Below, piece after piece: positions 9,951-17,454 of a stretch of DNA of 64,000 nt. Below the pieces are notes generated by a model. It saw nothing but the letters and a program-made list of their open reading frames with translations. It did no database searches and had not been told where the DNA came from. The stretch is from Jaminaea rosea (taxonomy: Eukaryota > Basidiomycota > Exobasidiomycetes > Microstromatales), in the NCBI RefSeq assembly GCF_003144245.1, contig NW_020289987.1, positions 186,001-250,000 on the forward strand. Reading direction: 5' to 3'. The stretch's first letter is position 1. The number at the start of each line of letters is the position of its first letter. Both the position numbers and the translations under genes were made by a program.

Positions 9951-11975
9951 TCAAATGGCGTTGGTCCACTTGGCGTCTCGCAGCTTGACGATACGCCCTG
10001 AGCTAGAGATGGTCCATCCCGGCTCCGCAACAGAGAAGAAGGGCTTGGACTCCATCGCGTCCTCATCGCCCTCGGCAGTCTTGTTGGGAGCTGGTCGCTT
10101 ACCCCGAGGAGTAGCGAGTATGACGCGGCTACTACTGCAACTTCCCTCATGTCCAGCGTAGTGTGTAGGCTGCGTAGACTCACTTGCGGTGCGTTTGCGA
10201 GGAAGGAGCGAGTGCTTCTGATGCTTCTTTGCATGTTCTTGGCTGCTAATAGTGTCAAATTTGACTTTTTTCAATGGGCTGCCAGAGGCGCTGCTGACGT
10301 TGTGCTTGTTCGTAGTGGCCAGAACCTTCAAGGGAGAGGAGGAGCTGGACTGGCCACATGGAGAGCTCGTTACTGAAGTATCACCGCTCTCAGGGAGCTG
10401 CTCCTTGTGACATTTGGAGGCATGTACCCACCAATTGGTGGGCTCGATGGCGCCGAAGGTGATCCATTTGCTGCGGGGGATGAAAATGGTCACAATGTGA
10501 GCCTGCGCTGCGGATTCGACCTGATCGAGCTCTTTCTACTCACTCGCACTGGTGGCAGAGACCCTTGAGCTCACTACCTTCTCCGACCTTGCCGTCGACT
10601 CCCTGCTGTCGTCGCCTGGTCTCTAGAGGTTCTTGGTACTGTAGACAAGTTTTGGGCGAGATGCCATGTGCTCGAATCATATGGTATCTGCGCGTGTACG
10701 AAGAGGCGAGGTGAGCAGGAGGTTGCAGAAGAAGCTCGTTGCCCCTTGTTTGCGGCCAGACTGACCGGTAGCTTGAATTGCGCAGATTGAGCCAACCACC
10801 GACGAGGCTGTTGCCCCTTCCATAGCCCGAAGCCTGATGAGGCAGGCAGAGGCCGCACCACGCCTCCTTGCTGCCCATTGCGCCTGCTGCCCCATCTTGA
10901 CCGCAGCTCTTGCCGGCTCGAACGATGGCGGGCGTGTAGAGGTCTCCGGGGAAGCGTTCGGGCTGCTTGCGAGCTAGAAGAGGGAGTTGAGCAGAGTTGC
11001 AAGCGTCAGTCGGGGTGCATTCACGTCGTGCGCTGTGCTGCGACGCTACTCACGACGCAGGTGAGCAGGGTCACGACGCTCGTCAAAGGGAGGGGGTCGC
11101 GAGGCAAAGCGACCATGTATGTGGCGTTGATGAGGGAAGAGGTCCTCTACAGCGGTGGGTGGGATGACTGAGGCCAAGATGAGCGTAGGCTCGGCCGGTA
11201 CTGAAGATTGCTCTTGTTGAGGAGGCGAGGGAGGCGGCGGAGGGGACTGGGCCTCTCTCTCTCCTTTGGCCTCAGTTTGAGCTTGAATCAGAGCGATCTG
11301 ATCTTCAAGTCTCTTGCGTTCAGCGCTGCGTTGTGAGGTGGCGATCTTTCTGGTCTTCCGCTGTGATGTGACTCGTCTGTGGCGAGTAAGGACGATGGCT
11401 GGCATGTTGCGGGCCACCTCAGGAATGGGCACTTCGGTGCCTGTGAAGCGGCTGCCCAGCGGGGTGCGAGTGTCCCTATCTTGAGCATTTGCGCCATCAA
11501 AGGATTTGGCGAAAGCGGGCAGGGCACGGGCCGTGCTTGAGAGGTATTGATCACTGTGGCTGCGAATGAGGGACTTGTGAGTCGATTGAGTGGACAAGCA
11601 CTCAGAACGACCTCCGAGCTGACGAGGGTTGGGAGTCGAGACGCTGCGCTGAGGCTGCGTGATATGATGTTGAGGTGCCGAGCCTCCATGGTGCGAGCCA
11701 GATGAGGCTTTGGGCTGAGGTGGATTGCGAGAGCGATGTTGCTTCGGTGGCAGCGTGACAAAGGCTATCGGATTCAGGGGGCGAGGAGGAGAGAAGGCTC
11801 GGTTGGCCTGTTCGTCTATGCCACAACGGCGGGTCGCTGGGTACCGCTTCGAGTATCGATGGACACCGAGGACAGCATTGTAGGCCTGATTGACGGTGAT
11901 AGTACCATGTCGGTGGGATAGAGAGGAGCCTGGCGTCGTCATGTTAGCCGTGGCGGCTTCCGTGGTGCTAGCCAT
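9951..11975 (-). CDS. Putative transcription regulator with Rua1-type C-terminal zinc domain
   Basis: Model: complement of 11054-11975, 10766-10973, 10544-10687 and 9951-10470, 597 residues, all phases closing. The intron 10688-10765 (78 nt) has no stop codon and would otherwise add 26 residues inside the domain. Residues about 310-450 carry the Rua1 C-terminal pattern: ERFPGDLYTPAIVR, then WCGLC, then GGWLNLRNSSYRYHMIRAHG, and finally LCHQCDKWITF and WWVHASKCHK, where Cys/His pairs suggest zinc binding. The N-terminal 300 residues are basic, Ser/Gln/Pro-rich and disordered. In Ustilago maydis, Rua1 activates the ustilagic acid glycolipid cluster; the target of this protein is unknown and no glycolipid genes are in the window. 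The next gene upstream on the same strand encodes the secreted repeat protein. Confidence 0.75.
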
Positions 11976-12570
11976 CACCGCAGGGCGCAGGCAGTCGACC
12001 TGCAACCGGAGGCCAAGTCACGATGAAAGTGCAAGAAGAGGAACTTTGGAAGTGAACACAGTCTAGTTGTGGAAAGAAAAGCAACAAGCAAGCTGCAAGA
12101 ACTTCAATCCAAGTGGCCATCCCTCCGCTGGCTGCAACTGGCTGACGGTGCTGCGACAAAAGCGATCTGTCGCTTCTGATGAGCGCGTCCCGTTCGCAGT
12201 CGCAGAGGCGCAGCTTGCGACCCAAGCAGTGGCAGCAGAGCGTCATTCGTTCGCAGCGTCATTCGTTCGCCACGGGTTCGCAGTACATCGTCATAACAGT
12301 GAACGACGTCGTAGGATATCAAAACAACACTCTGCGTTCATCAAGTTCGCTCTACACTCTGCAGACCGTATGATTAACGAGCGTCATGAAGGATCGTATT
12401 CAATCGAAGTAGTGGCGTAAGCAAAGAGCGTCGTCGGTCAAGTAAGGAGGAGCGGATAAAAGGTCAAGGCAGGGGCGGTCCGAGGTGAGATGACGTGGGT
12501 ATCAGCTTGAGCATCGGTGACTCCGAGGCCTGATGATCTACGCTTCAAAGAGGCGAGCAGGCCGCATGGC
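11976..12570. promoter_or_regulatory. Upstream region of the Rua1-domain gene, with a 16-bp tandem repeat
   Basis: This 595 bp gap lies between the start of the Rua1-domain gene and the stop of the next gene on the same strand. It holds two adjacent perfect copies of a 16-bp unit (12239-12270) with the core CGTCATTCGTTCGC. I see no coding signal. A regulatory role for the repeat is inference. Confidence 0.45.
12239..12270. repeat. Two perfect tandem copies of a 16-bp unit
   Basis: Copies at 12239-12254 and 12255-12270 read AGCGTCATTCGTTCGC. A related TTCGCAG motif recurs on both sides (about 12190-12200 and 12276-12283). Confidence 0.85.
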
Positions 12571-15500
12571 TCAAATATCGAGGCCATTTGCTCTCCTCAG
12601 GATGCTCAGGAGCATACCAGCCGTCCCAAGAAAGCCAGCGCCCTTGCTTAGCCCGCTGGCCACCTTCTTGACTTTCGGTGGGATCTTCGGCATCTTGAAA
12701 CGGGCATCGAGAGCGTCATCGTCGAGTGCTCGGAGGGCGAGGGCGAGCGTCTGAGCGTCCTGTCATTAGCGACGGGTGAGGAGGTGGTCAGCATTCGTGG
12801 CACGCTGAGCTCAGCCTCGCCAGGCTACTCGCCTCAATGTCTCGTCGATTGACGAAGCCCTGAGCAAAATGCTTTGCATCGGTTCCGATGTCATGGAGAA
12901 AGCTCATGAAGTCGCGTGCGTTGAGATCCTCGCTGGAGTCACGGTCGGCAAGAAGGTCGTCCACGAGGTCGTTGAGGTCACGCTGATGGACGGGCTTGCC
13001 GGACTCTGCTTTGAGCTCCGTGAGCAGGGTCTGTAGCTCTTTTGCTTCGTCAGCAGTCATCTCCTTGTGGGTCACCATGCCGTCAATCGCCTTCTGTATT
13101 GTAGCCTCGTCGGCGTCTTAGAGGAGAAGGCGGCGTCAGCACAAGCGCGCTTTTGGCTCGGCCGCATAGCTACCCGCTACTCACTCTTGATGGCTGCGAT
13201 CATGGACTCGAGCGCTTGACCAATTGGATGCAGGGCGCCATCACGCCTGGCTGGGAAGTTCAAGTTTTGGAGGTAGGCGTCGTCGCGACGGATGAGCTTC
13301 CTAACAAAGGCGGCTGCCAAGCCCAACTTGCGCCAGAAGCCACGTCCTTGGAGGCTTGAGCTGGCCTCGCGAGAGAGGAGGTCGATCACATCATCGGAAT
13401 GACGGGACGAGGTGTCGCTGGCATCACGTTGCGAGATCAATGGAGGAAGCATCGTCATGCTTTCCACTAGCCTGCGCAAGTCTATGTCGGACCTTTGCTC
13501 GGCGTCAACTGCATTTTGAGGCGATGACAGCTCGTCTTCGTCACGAGTGACACGCAAGGAATCCAGCATCTTGCGGTAAGATTCGCTGTTGCCCACTGAA
13601 AGACGATCCTCAGCAGTGAGCAGCGAGTCAACGTGGTGGCTGGTTGGCAAGGTGGTGGATCCTGCCTCGGGTAGATCTTGCTGGTGAGCGGCACTGCTCT
13701 CGATGCGAGCGGCCGGGTCGTCGACGTTGGTACGGCCGAGGAGAGCTGCAGATACATCGTCGGACTCTGCAGAGGATAGACAGTAGTCACAGCCATCAGC
13801 GATTCAATGTCGGCCGCTCTTGTCACCGCGAATCCTTCTCACCTCGAGTGTCCGGCGCTGTGGAGACGTCTGAAGGCGATTCTTCGCGCTCTTGAACGGG
13901 AGATACCAAGAAAATGCGGTCTGCCGCCTGGCCTTCCCTTTTCGGCGCAATAGCAGCAGCGACATCGATGTCGCCTCGCTTGCTCAAGGTAGGCTTGTTT
14001 GGCGGCGAGCGACGCATCCCAAGGCGCTGCTGCTCTACCTCTTCTTCACGTCGTCGCAGTGCATCTGCGATGTGAGCGTAGGCATCATTGTCGTCAGATC
14101 TCCTGTTGTTCTTCGGAGTGGACAGCCAATAGACGACGCGATTCGAGATACCGCCTACCATGCCCTTGGTGAACGAGACGCCAGCATTCCAAACGGCTTT
14201 TCCTAGCTTGGCGTACCCACCTTTGCCAGCTGTAGCTGAAGCAGCAGCGTCGACCTTTGCGGTGGAAGACGCAGGGTCTGGTTTCGACGAAGACTTAGAG
14301 TCCGAGGAATCGATTTGCTTCCCTCTGTCGCCCTCACCATTCTTTTCGTCTGCTTGACGATAGACGAGACGAAGTAGGGGACCATCTTCCTCAGTTGCTG
14401 CTGGTGTGATGCGTTCTTTGAAGTAGTATTAAAAAGAGTGGGTCAAGGTCACCATGCAGTCGCAGCGCAGCGCAGCGATAAGGAGCCGAGAAAACGCTCA
14501 CCTTGGGCACCCTCAGCCCTCTTGCCGCTCGATGACTTGGTCGTGCCACCAGGCGCAGGCGATGGAGTTGTCTTCGACGTAGTTTGCTTCGGCTTATCCT
14601 TGTCGTGAACCTTTTGAAGCTGAGTCATCATGAATGACATACCCGCCGAGTCGGCCATGCGCAGACCGACGTCCTTGAGTCCCTTCTTCATCTTCTTCTT
14701 CCATGAGTCCTTGATTTTGAAGGTTCGCGCGTCCATCGCACCGAATTCGTACAGGCGGGGACCATGCGAACTGGTCGAGTGCTCATCAAGGACGCGACGC
14801 TGATTGCTTTGCGGCTGTTGCTGGCCAACGAAGAAGATTGGCACGCCTTGGGTGTCGCGCTCGACCACGTCGAGGCTGAGCTGACCCTGACTGATGTCTT
14901 CTTCGTTGTCTCGTTGTCCTATGATAAGGACAGGCTGCTTGTCGCGTTCGCTCAGAAGGAAGTGAGGTCGGGCCTGCAGGTCGTCGTCGTCATTCTCCCT
15001 CTTGCCCGTGAAGACGATTGGCACCTCCTTGGGGTGCTCGCCGGCATCCCTTTGGCCGCGGATGAGGACTGTCTGCTCAGCGCGCTTGCCAAGGACGAGG
15101 TAAGGCATACCCTGGGCGGCTGCAGTTTTTGCACTGTCTTCATTCCTTTGGTTCACGATGAGAATTGGAGGCTCTTCCTGCCGCTGACTGACGAGGAAGA
15201 CCTCTGGCTGAGCTTGCGCCTCCCCCTCATCGCGCTGACCAAGCATGTAAACTTGAGGCGGCCTAGCGGAGTCTCGCTCCGCAACAAGCACGACAGGAAT
15301 CTGGTCCTCTGACTCGCCTCGCTCAGCGAAAAAGTCGGCACGATTGAGTTTGCCTGCTGCAGTCGGGCTTATCGCAGTGCCTTGAAGGCGAGAGAGGCGC
15401 AGACTAGAGCCCAGCTCATCGGGACCGACTGCGAACTGAGATTTCTCATACTGATGCTGCGGCCTGGTGACTGTGGTCGAATCGGGTATCTCAGCGGACA

Positions 15501-15637
15501 TCTGCGAAGCAGCAAGGTCAGCCACTGGATTATCAGGGCGAGCAGGCCCAGCACAGACTCACTGGGATCGGAGCCGCAGCTGACATGTGACCAGCCAGGG
15601 CCAAGCCGAGTGTGATGTGAACGGCTGTGAGCTTCAT
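12571..15637 (-). CDS. Secreted repetitive protein with degenerate Kex2-like repeats and amphipathic segments
   Basis: Model: complement of 15563-15637, 14502-15501, 13843-14415, 13185-13766, 12833-13116 and 12571-12759, 900 residues with every phase closing. The fifth intron is GC-AG (12760-12832, donor GAG|GCGAGT); an acceptor at 12751 would also keep frame. Exon 1 is a signal peptide (MKLTAVHITLGLALAGHMSA, then AAP). Residues 93-254 hold 11 imperfect repeats of the form P-x-hydrophobic(4)-[GSN]-[QKE]-R-[DEN], such as PVLIIGQRDN, PYLVLGKRAE and PIVFTGKREN, spaced 10-21 residues. Similar [QKR]R-D sites recur later (LISQRDAS, LIRRDDAY, PARRDGAL, VNRRDIE). Between them lie cationic or amphipathic stretches, such as SWKKKMKKGLKDVGLRM, GFWRKLGLAAAFVRKLIRR and PPKVKKVASGLSKGAGFLG. 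I know no family for it. It resembles kexin-processed precursors in design only; that role is inference, since most sites have Q or E before R. Confidence 0.7.
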
Positions 15638-16300: not shown

Positions 16301-17454
16301 ATGGGATGTGTCTTCTCATCGCTTGCGCAGGTGTTCCTCTATGTCGGCGAGTTCTTCGAGAGTGAGTGACGAGCGCCTGGCCATGCTGCGTGCCAGATTG
16401 GCGATCACCGAGCTGAGATTGCCTCTTTTCCCTTCCCACTCATCTTCGCCCACGTTGCTACGCCGCAGACGTCTTCCTCCTTCTCGGCGAGATCCTCTCG
16501 GTCCTCACGCGCGGCATCTTCACCCTCCTCGTGGGCATCTGCGACATTCTTGCCGCCGCCTCGTGCTGTTGCCGAGTGCCCTACGACCAGCGGCCGGATC
16601 GAGGCACATTCGTCTACTCGAACGCAATCACAAAGGATGTAGGAGGCAACAAGGTTCTCAACAAGATGGTAATCAGCCAAGCCGACAGAGCCAAACAGCG
16701 TGAGGATAAGCTCAAGAAGACAGAGGCTGCGCTGGAGAAGCAACGTGATGCCAAGGAGAGCGAGGACGATAAGGCTACGTCCGAGTCAGCCGCCAAGGAA
16801 GCAGATGCTGCGACAAAGCCCTTCATGGCGCGCTTCTTTGGTAGTCAGCCCGCAAAAAAGATCGACGGGACGCCAGCTGCCGCCGCAGTCGCCGCCGCCA
16901 GTGGCAAGGAGGGGGAGGTCGCTCCTGAGCCAGTCGCAAAGGGCGACGTCCCCGCCGAGACCAAGCCTGCAAAGGAGCCTTTGGTCAGGCGACTATTCGG
17001 CAAGCCCGCTGCAGCGATGGCCGAGAAGGGGGAGACTGCGCCCCCCGCACCCGTGGAGAAGTCAGTCGACGTTGCTGCTGCAGGCGCACAAAACGCTGCG
17101 GACCCCGCCGAGCCCGCTGAGGCTGGGAAGGCCCCCTCTAAGCCCTTTTTCGCATGGCGTTCCAACGAGAAGCCGGAGGAGCAGAAGACCCCCACCGTCT
17201 CTGCCAACAGCGCACCTGCCGATGGCGCCGCCGCGCCGCCGGCTGAATCCGCCACGGCTGCAGCCGCCGACAAGCCCACCGAACTGAAGAGGGCCAAGAC
17301 GACGCTTCAGACTCTGTGGCACGGCAAGAAGCCCGCTGTCCCAGAGAAGCCCACGACCGCTGGCGCTGCTGCTGCCCCTGCTGACGGCGACGTAGTAAAG
17401 ACTGAGGCTCCTTCTGCTGCTCCTGCGGCTGTCGAAGAGCCCAAGGCCGCTTGA
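16301..17454 (+). CDS. MGC-type membrane-anchored protein with Ala/Pro/Lys-rich repeat tail
   Basis: Two exons (16301-16361 and 16469-17454) give 348 residues. The start MGCVFSSL fits an N-myristoylation signal (Gly2, Ser6) with a nearby Cys for palmitoylation. Residues about 5-52 are strongly hydrophobic (FLLLGEILSVLTRGIFTLLV) and end in a Cys triplet at 53-55, so the N-terminus should sit in or on a membrane. A charged helix (about 90-125) follows. The rest is low-complexity Ala/Pro/Lys and holds a short motif in diverged copies: KPFMARFFGSQPAKK, EPLVRRLFGKPAAA, KPFFAWRSNEKPE and LQTLWHGKKPAVPEK. The hydrophobic head resembles small conserved fungal MG-start proteins of unknown function. 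I assign no activity. It is divergent from the secreted repeat protein. Confidence 0.7.

What the first reader, a model, noticed from the sequence alone, without database searches (positions are those of the whole stretch)
12571..15637. Undescribed secreted 900-residue protein with degenerate Kex2-like repeats and separate cationic amphipathic blocks
The six-exon model opens with a signal peptide. It then has 11 imperfect repeats of a hydrophobic core ending in [QKE]-R-[DEN] (residues 93-254), and the same [QKR]R-D sites recur through later exons. At least four Lys/Arg-rich amphipathic stretches lie between such sites, one per exon. The design recalls kexin-processed secreted precursors in other fungi, but only a few sites are true KR or RR and most have Q or E before R. 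It could be an eroding peptide precursor, a precursor for a protease with altered specificity, or a surface repeat protein. I know no named family with this layout.
Basis: partly seen in the sequence, partly recalled or inferred. Interest (0 to 1): 0.8.

Follow-up and report, generated by a model that had tools for sequence, protein, structure and literature searches.

The report
Fungal precursor cut at unusual sites
A fungal gene for a 900-residue, apparently secreted protein carries about thirty likely cutting sites that fit the relaxed rule of the processing enzyme kexin rather than the usual two-basic-residue rule, so it probably releases a mixture of short peptides and would be missed by searches that look only for the usual sites.

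Summary
The observation mostly holds. A six-exon minus-strand gene (12571-15637) encodes 900 aa with a hydrophobic N-terminus, 11 imperfect repeats at residues 93-254, and recurring R-D sites later on. The sites do not look like random erosion. In the mature protein Arg, not Lys, sits in a context close to the published extended kexin pattern: aliphatic P4 (30 of 70 Arg vs 12.7 expected), acidic P1' (20 vs 10.9), acidic P4' (27 vs 10.8). Arg meeting at least 3 of 4 subsite criteria number 11 vs 1.0; in residues 261-900, which show no detectable repeats, 9 vs 0.7. The largest z among 19 other window ORFs is 1.4, against 9.6 here. Cutting at the 30 P4-aliphatic sites frees two cationic hydrophobic peptides, residues 692-710 (+6) and 859-894 (+8); 13 of 3000 shuffles do as well, with thresholds set after seeing them. 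The number of cationic blocks is at chance. Best reading: a kexin-processed polyprotein using LxxR-type sites. It works like fungal KEPs, Rep1 or Ece1 but fails the dibasic-repeat definition of KEPs. Cleavage and peptide function are inferred; no fungal relatives could be searched.

The parts
12571..15637 (-). Whole gene, six exons, 900 aa (exons 15637-15563, 15501-14502, 14415-13843, 13766-13185, 13116-12833, 12759-12571)
   Evidence: Splice model with consistent phases; codon-usage score positive in the chosen frame of every exon; no transcript seen
15563..15637 (-). Exon 1: Met start and hydrophobic signal-like segment (residues 1-25)
   Evidence: Most hydrophobic 19-mer of the protein is residues 3-21; no signal-peptide predictor available
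14815..15300 (-). Eleven imperfect repeats, residues 93-254: hydrophobic core; 10 of 11 end in [QEK]-R, 8 of those 10 with L, I or V at P4
   Evidence: 65 similar 9-mer pairs vs 1.7 in shuffles over residues 81-260; [LIV]xxR 10 vs 3.1 there, 0/5000; coordinates and P4 count
14659..14724 (-). Cationic block A, residues 285-306, ends at site VGLR|MADSA; the Arg before it has Met at P4
   Evidence: Fragment list, coordinates; cationic blocks are not above chance in number
14138..14227 (-). Cationic block B, residues 422-451, ends at site ISNR|VV; no site at its N-terminal edge, which I set by eye
   Evidence: Fragment list, coordinates; cationic blocks are not above chance in number
13285..13341 (-). 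Peptide C, residues 692-710, net +6, flush between sites LQGR| and LIRR|DD
   Evidence: Fragment list; cationic amphipathic windows; fragment test 13/3000; helix at these residues in a low-confidence model; coordinates
12592..12699 (-). Peptide D, residues 859-894, net +8, flush between sites LDAR| and ILRR|AN near the C-terminus; holds the most hydrophobic 12-mer of the protein
   Evidence: Fragment list; cationic amphipathic windows; fragment test 13/3000; hydropathy; coordinates
12760..12832 (-). Last intron, GC-AG type, donor GAG|GCGAGT, 73 nt
   Evidence: Chosen by phase and flanking consensus among the donors I inspected; inferred

Best explanation
The gene encodes a secreted polyprotein that enters the ER through its signal peptide and is cut in the late Golgi by a kexin (Kex2-like) protease, mainly at relaxed sites [L/I/V]-x-x-R, often followed by acidic residues, rather than at KR/RR; Kex1-type trimming would then remove the C-terminal Arg. 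Shown here: the gene structure as a model, the repeats, and a site signature that fits kexin subsites at several positions and is specific to Arg. Inferred: secretion, cutting, and what the peptides do. The products would be short peptides of 8-21 residues from the repeat block, made of an often acidic or polar head and a hydrophobic core, plus a mixed set from the rest, including two cationic hydrophobic peptides (C and D). I think the repeat peptides most likely assemble on or near the hyphal surface, as Rep1 peptides of Ustilago maydis do, and the cationic peptides most likely act on membranes of competing microbes (each function about 0.35; the confidence below is for the kexin polyprotein).
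For: Arg context, mature protein: P4 LIV 30 of 70 vs 12.7 (0/1500); P1' acidic 20 vs 10.9 (4/1500); P4' acidic 27 vs 10.8 (0/1500); basic P3 depleted, 1 vs 9.5. Lys shows none of these: [LIV]xxK 5 vs 9.3, LxxK 0 vs 4.5. Off-register [LIV]xR and [LIV]xxxR are not enriched in the mature protein (17 each vs 12.6-12.7; 523 and 538 of 5000). Arg meeting at least 3 of 4 (P4, P1', P2', P4'): 11 vs 1.04 (0/2000); residues 261-900, 9 vs 0.71 (0/2000); Lys 0 vs 0.75; largest z among 19 other window ORFs of 300 aa or more is 1.4 against 9.6. This composite is also reached by 0/3000 shuffles confined to 20- or 40-residue blocks. The pattern was published and seen before the offset scan: acidic P1', P2', P4' at cleaved Kex2 sites (PMC2515848), aliphatic P4 with variable P2 (PMC8528282). 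After the repeats self-similarity is at chance (20 vs 17.0 pairs), so those sites are not evident copies of one another. Cutting at the 30 sites isolates two cationic hydrophobic peptides (13/3000 shuffles). No Cys and no N-glycosylation sequon in 900 aa. Exons 2-6 all hold P4-aliphatic Arg: 11, 6, 6, 4 and 3.
Against: P2 is Gln or Glu in 8 of 10 Arg-ending repeats (unit list); Gln is not among the top alternative P2 residues quoted in PMC8528282. Acidic P3' is enriched too (20 vs 10.8), which the abstract of PMC2515848 does not list. Acidic P2' (D/E) is only mild (19 vs about 12; 78 and 53 of 3000), and in residues 261-900 P1' and P2' taken alone are weak (289 and 248 of 3000 for 20-residue blocks). 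A looser composite (P4 aliphatic plus one acid) reaches z 3.8 in one control ORF, against 8.4 here. KR/RR excess is stronger in some controls (z up to 4.1) than here (2.0). Cationic blocks and amphipathic windows are not clearly above chance; the thresholds were set after I had seen C and D. Four fragments of 65-87 residues stay uncut. No orthologue, transcript, peptide or host genome was available.
Confidence: 0.68

Rival explanations
1. A surface or cell-wall repeat protein that is secreted whole; the repeats form beta or amyloid-like contacts and the Arg contexts reflect folding or charge patterning, not cleavage.
For: Seven of nine hydrophobic runs of 4 or more residues lie in the repeat block; the exon-2 model, with nearly all residues below pLDDT 50, places a strand in or touching 8 of 11 repeat cores.
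Against: The signature is specific to Arg, in one register, absent from Lys, and also strong in residues 261-900; helix patterns such as i,i+4 salt bridges would be expected for Lys too. The single-sequence models (mean pLDDT 33 and 41) say little either way.
Confidence: 0.15
2. A processed precursor cut by another Arg-specific protease (a kexin paralogue with a changed S2 pocket, or a yapsin-type monobasic protease), so that Q-R and E-R sites are preferred.
For: P2 Gln is enriched (10 vs 4.0); 6 of those 10 lie in residues 81-260. Dibasic sites are few (15 vs 9.6).
Against: Aliphatic P4 and acidic primed-side residues are what Kex2 is reported to favour (PMC2515848, PMC6258133, passages), and P2 at the sites outside the repeats is varied (site list).
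Confidence: 0.12
3. A dibasic KEP-type peptide precursor that is eroding and no longer processed.
For: Only 2 of the 11 repeats end in KR; the last has no Arg at that place.
Against: P4 is kept in 8 of the 10 Arg-ending units and the pattern stands outside the repeats; the reading frame is open with ordinary codon usage in all exons of the model.
Confidence: 0.05

Closest known systems
KEX2-processed repeat proteins (KEPs), Le Marquer 2019 (PMC6339444; abstract and two sections read) and Umemura 2020 (PMC7329392; abstract, one section and passages read)
   Same: Secreted precursor, repeated short peptides bounded by kexin-type sites; predicted repeat peptides of 8-21 residues
   Different: Sites are mostly [LIV]xxR with a free P2, not KR/RR/KK; cutting at KR/RR does not separate the 11 repeats (140, 28 and 68 aa fragments over that block)
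Repellent precursor Rep1 of Ustilago maydis (described in PMC4617103 and PMC8528282, parts and passages seen)
   Same: Secreted repeat precursor with imperfect repeats and a larger remaining part
   Different: Rep1 repeats are 34-55 aa and separated by Kex2 sites; here units are much shorter and mostly end in Q/E-R. Rep1 sequence was not compared
Ece1, the candidalysin polyprotein of Candida albicans (PMC12153327, passages seen)
   Same: Polyprotein with several unlike peptides, among them an amphipathic one that the paper likens to cationic antimicrobial peptides
   Different: Ece1 has seven KR sites and 271 aa; no sequence comparison was made and no toxic activity is claimed here
[quoted passage not shown]
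   Same: Use of the expanded LxxR motif
   Different: Those have one N-terminal pro-domain removed; here 30 [LIV]xxR sites run along the protein

Membership tests
KEP (Le Marquer 2019 / Umemura 2020) | N-terminal signal peptide | tested here: inconclusive
   Hydrophobic N-terminus is the strongest 19-mer of the protein; no signal-peptide predictor available
KEP (Le Marquer 2019 / Umemura 2020) | At least three similar repeats each bounded by dibasic sites (KR, RR, KK; Umemura also RK) | tested here: not met
   2 of 11 repeat units end in KR; the KR/RR fragments over the block are 140, 28 and 68 aa. FIMO and the authors' scripts were not run
KEP (Le Marquer 2019 / Umemura 2020) | Tandem repeats alike enough for detection (Umemura score above 0.6) | tested here: inconclusive
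   Mean identity between units 26%, maximum 57%; the published score was not recomputed
KEP in the wide sense (kexin-processed repeat precursor) | Kexin-type site signature between repeats | tested here: met
   [LIV]xxR in residues 81-260: 10 vs 3.1, 0/5000; 8 of 10 Arg-ending units. Cleavage itself not tested
Dikaritin-type RiPP precursor | Neighbouring DUF3328 modification gene | tested here: not met
   No such Pfam match in any of the 44 non-focal stop-to-stop ORFs of 150 aa or more listed. ORFs dropped for overlap, spliced neighbours and anything beyond the window ends were not scanned
Alpha-type pheromone precursor | STE13 signature (XA or XP) after the cleavage sites | tested here: not met
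   XA after 4 and XP after 0 of the 30 [LIV]xxR sites
Repellent Rep1 | Sequence similarity to Rep1 | not testable with these tools
Ece1 / candidalysin | Sequence similarity; cytolytic peptide between KR sites | not tested
   Architecture compared only from passages

The most novel reading that the evidence does not exclude
There is a class of fungal secreted polyproteins whose kexin sites are mostly of the LxxR/acidic type, invisible to surveys that cut at dibasic sites, and this one joins two kinds of product in a single precursor: many short peptides with hydrophobic cores and often acidic heads, and a few cationic helical peptides, freed by the same kind of site.
Probability: 0.35. Interest if true: 0.75.

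Novelty: new variant of a known kind. Interest (0 to 1): 0.58.

Why it matters
The two published KEP surveys whose methods I read cut or test sequences at KR, RR, KK (or RK) sites. This protein shows a strong, Arg-specific kexin-type signature at sites such searches skip. If peptides are really released here, those catalogues are incomplete in a systematic way, and rescoring secretomes with P4, P1' and P4' would extend them. Peptides C and D are concrete candidates that can be synthesised and tested.

Tried and rejected
Pfam on the spliced protein: only DUF3811 at E 0.054, below its cut-off, treated as noise. PDB sequences: one hit up to E 1, at 0.31, named Syn-F4-Link, treated as noise. The exon-2 protein (333 of 900 aa) in genome contigs and viral contigs: 83 and 9 pattern hits, none confirmed; the first holds bacteria and archaea, the second viruses, so this says little. 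Own-genome search: none held. AlphaFold without alignment for exon 2 and exon 4: mean pLDDT 33.2 and 41.2, too poor for fold searches, which I did not run. Charge clustering as stand-alone evidence for cationic peptides: rejected (784/2000). Cationic amphipathic windows: weak (166/2000). 'One cationic block per exon' as design: not supported. Helix salt bridges as cause of the P4' acid signal: disfavoured because Lys lacks it. Exons of different genes: not excluded by transcripts, but phases, codon usage and the shared signature argue against it. A cystathionine lyase-like neighbour was compared with PDB; it did not help to place the organism.

Searches of papers whose listings show no described LxxR-type repeat precursor by title; most listed papers were not opened and subscription papers are mostly not held, so absence from print is not shown. 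The exon bounds typed for the per-exon tally differ by one residue from the model at borders where a codon is split; no other count uses them. The hydrophobicity, hydropathy and AGGRESCAN-type scales typed are recalled; the AGGRESCAN-type averages support no claim here.

Full report
What was checked. The finding claims a six-exon gene for a secreted 900-residue protein with 11 imperfect repeats, recurrent R-D sites and cationic amphipathic blocks. I rebuilt the gene from the raw sequence. On the minus strand the exons 15637-15563, 15501-14502, 14415-13843, 13766-13185, 13116-12833 and 12759-12571 join in phase to a 2703-nt coding sequence, 900 codons and a TGA. The five introns are 61-86 nt. 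Four are GT-AG; the last needs a GC donor with good flanking consensus. The acceptor of intron 2 is uncertain by up to 18 nt, as three in-phase AG sites lie close together (sequence). A codon-usage score trained on ten window ORFs with Pfam support is positive in the chosen frame of every exon and higher than in its other five frames.

Repeats and sites. Residues 93-254 hold eleven units with a hydrophobic core; five end in QR, three in ER, two in KR, and the last lacks the Arg. Over residues 81-260 there are 65 similar 9-mer pairs against 1.7 in shuffles; the 640 residues after the block have 20 against 17.0, that is, no detectable repeats. The units share 26% identity on average. [QKR]RD occurs 8 times against 1.2 expected in the mature protein, and 5 against 0.92 in residues 261-900 (12/5000). 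KR/RR number 15 against 9.6 (198/5000); this excess is no greater than in some control ORFs.

The main result. Reading on Kex2 specificity gave two published patterns. One is an aliphatic residue at P4 with a variable P2 (LxxR; PMC8528282, first of three parts; PMC6258133, passages, citing Li et al. 2017, which I did not read). The other is acidic residues at P1', P2' and P4' of cleaved sites (PMC2515848, passages). Of 70 Arg in the mature part, 30 have L, I or V at P4 (12.7 expected), 20 have D or E at P1' (10.9), and 27 have D or E at P4' (10.8); basic P3 is nearly absent (1 against 9.5). Acidic P3' is enriched as well (20 against 10.8), which was not predicted. For the 51 Lys none of these appears: LxxK occurs 0 times against 4.5, and the composite criterion gives 0 against 0.75. 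Spacings one residue shorter or longer are not enriched in the mature protein. Arg that meet at least three of P4, P1', P2' and P4' number 11 against 1.04 (0/2000); in residues 261-900, 9 against 0.71 (0/2000), so the signal is not repeat duplication.

Controls. Under shuffling inside blocks of 20 or 40 residues the composite is reached by none of 3000 in any of four tests. P4 and P4' are reached by none, except P4 in residues 261-900 with blocks of 20 (2 of 3000). P1' and P2' alone in residues 261-900 are weak (289 and 248 of 3000 for blocks of 20; 173 and 167 for blocks of 40). In 19 other stop-to-stop ORFs of the window of 300 aa or more, the largest z for the composite is 1.4 against 9.6 here; for the looser composite (P4 aliphatic plus one acid) 3.8 against 8.4; for P4' acid 1.3 against 5.4; for [LIV]xxR 2.1 against 5.6 and for [LIV]xxR[DEN] 1.5 against 8.9. 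These controls are unspliced frames, some perhaps not genes, and were not chosen as secreted proteins, which is a limit.

The peptides. Cutting at the 30 [LIV]xxR sites and the dibasic sites gives 37 pieces, 29 of them 8-26 residues long; four of 65-87 residues are left. From the repeats come pieces of 8-21 residues, many with an acidic or polar head and a hydrophobic tail. Two pieces stand out: residues 692-710 (net +6) and 859-894 (net +8), each flush between two sites. With site positions fixed and other residues shuffled, 13 of 3000 trials give two such cationic hydrophobic pieces of 15-50 residues (29 of 3000 when dibasic cuts are added); I set these thresholds after seeing the pieces. 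The single-sequence model of exon 4 has a helix at exactly 692-710, at pLDDT about 50. Blocks A and B are therefore weak.

What it is. The best-supported reading is a kexin-processed secreted polyprotein whose sites follow the relaxed consensus. Secretion and processing are inferred. What the peptides do is more uncertain. Surface assembly of the repeat peptides is suggested by their hydrophobic cores and by analogy with Rep1; membrane activity of C and D is suggested by charge and amphipathicity and by analogy with Ece1-type polyproteins (PMC4617103, PMC12153327, passages). I give each about 0.35.

Comparison with the known. The two KEP surveys define the class through KR, RR, KK (one also RK) sites bounding at least three similar repeats (method sections read). 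Cutting at KR/RR gives 15 fragments of two residues or more and does not separate the repeats, so this protein fails the letter of the definition while it would work like a KEP. The authors' own programs were not run. No DUF3328 match appears among the 44 non-focal ORFs listed, so a cyclised RiPP is not suggested by the window. Sequence relation to Rep1, Hum3 or Ece1 was not tested. Tilletia is reported to have a putative Rep1 orthologue (PMC9172201, passages).

Host. The window holds matches to a fungal Zn(2)-Cys(6) domain, Msb1/Mug8, Pex19, PAN2 and Rua1_C, so a fungus is likely.

Verdict. New variant of a known kind; interest 0.58.

Noticed in passing
window 10543-12017, minus strand: The ORF at 10543-11049, downstream of the focal gene, matches Rua1_C (E 2.9e-9); the adjoining ORF 11049-12017 has no Pfam match and may be part of the same gene.
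   Followed up: no
window 16301-17451, plus strand: The divergent neighbour starts with ATG at 16301 (MGC...) and a hydrophobic stretch, followed by an Ala/Lys/Glu-rich part with short recurring motifs seen by eye; its longest ORF has no Pfam family above cut-off.
   Followed up: no
window 12571-15637, minus strand: The 900-aa protein has no Cys and no N-glycosylation sequon, although it has 23 Asn and 123 Ser plus Thr.
   Followed up: partly
window 14707-15312, plus strand: A 201-residue open frame lies antisense to exon 2; the antisense frames of exon 2 score low for codon usage, so it is probably a shadow of the coding frame.
   Followed up: partly
window 12760-12832, minus strand: The last intron appears to use a GC donor with otherwise good consensus.
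   Followed up: partly
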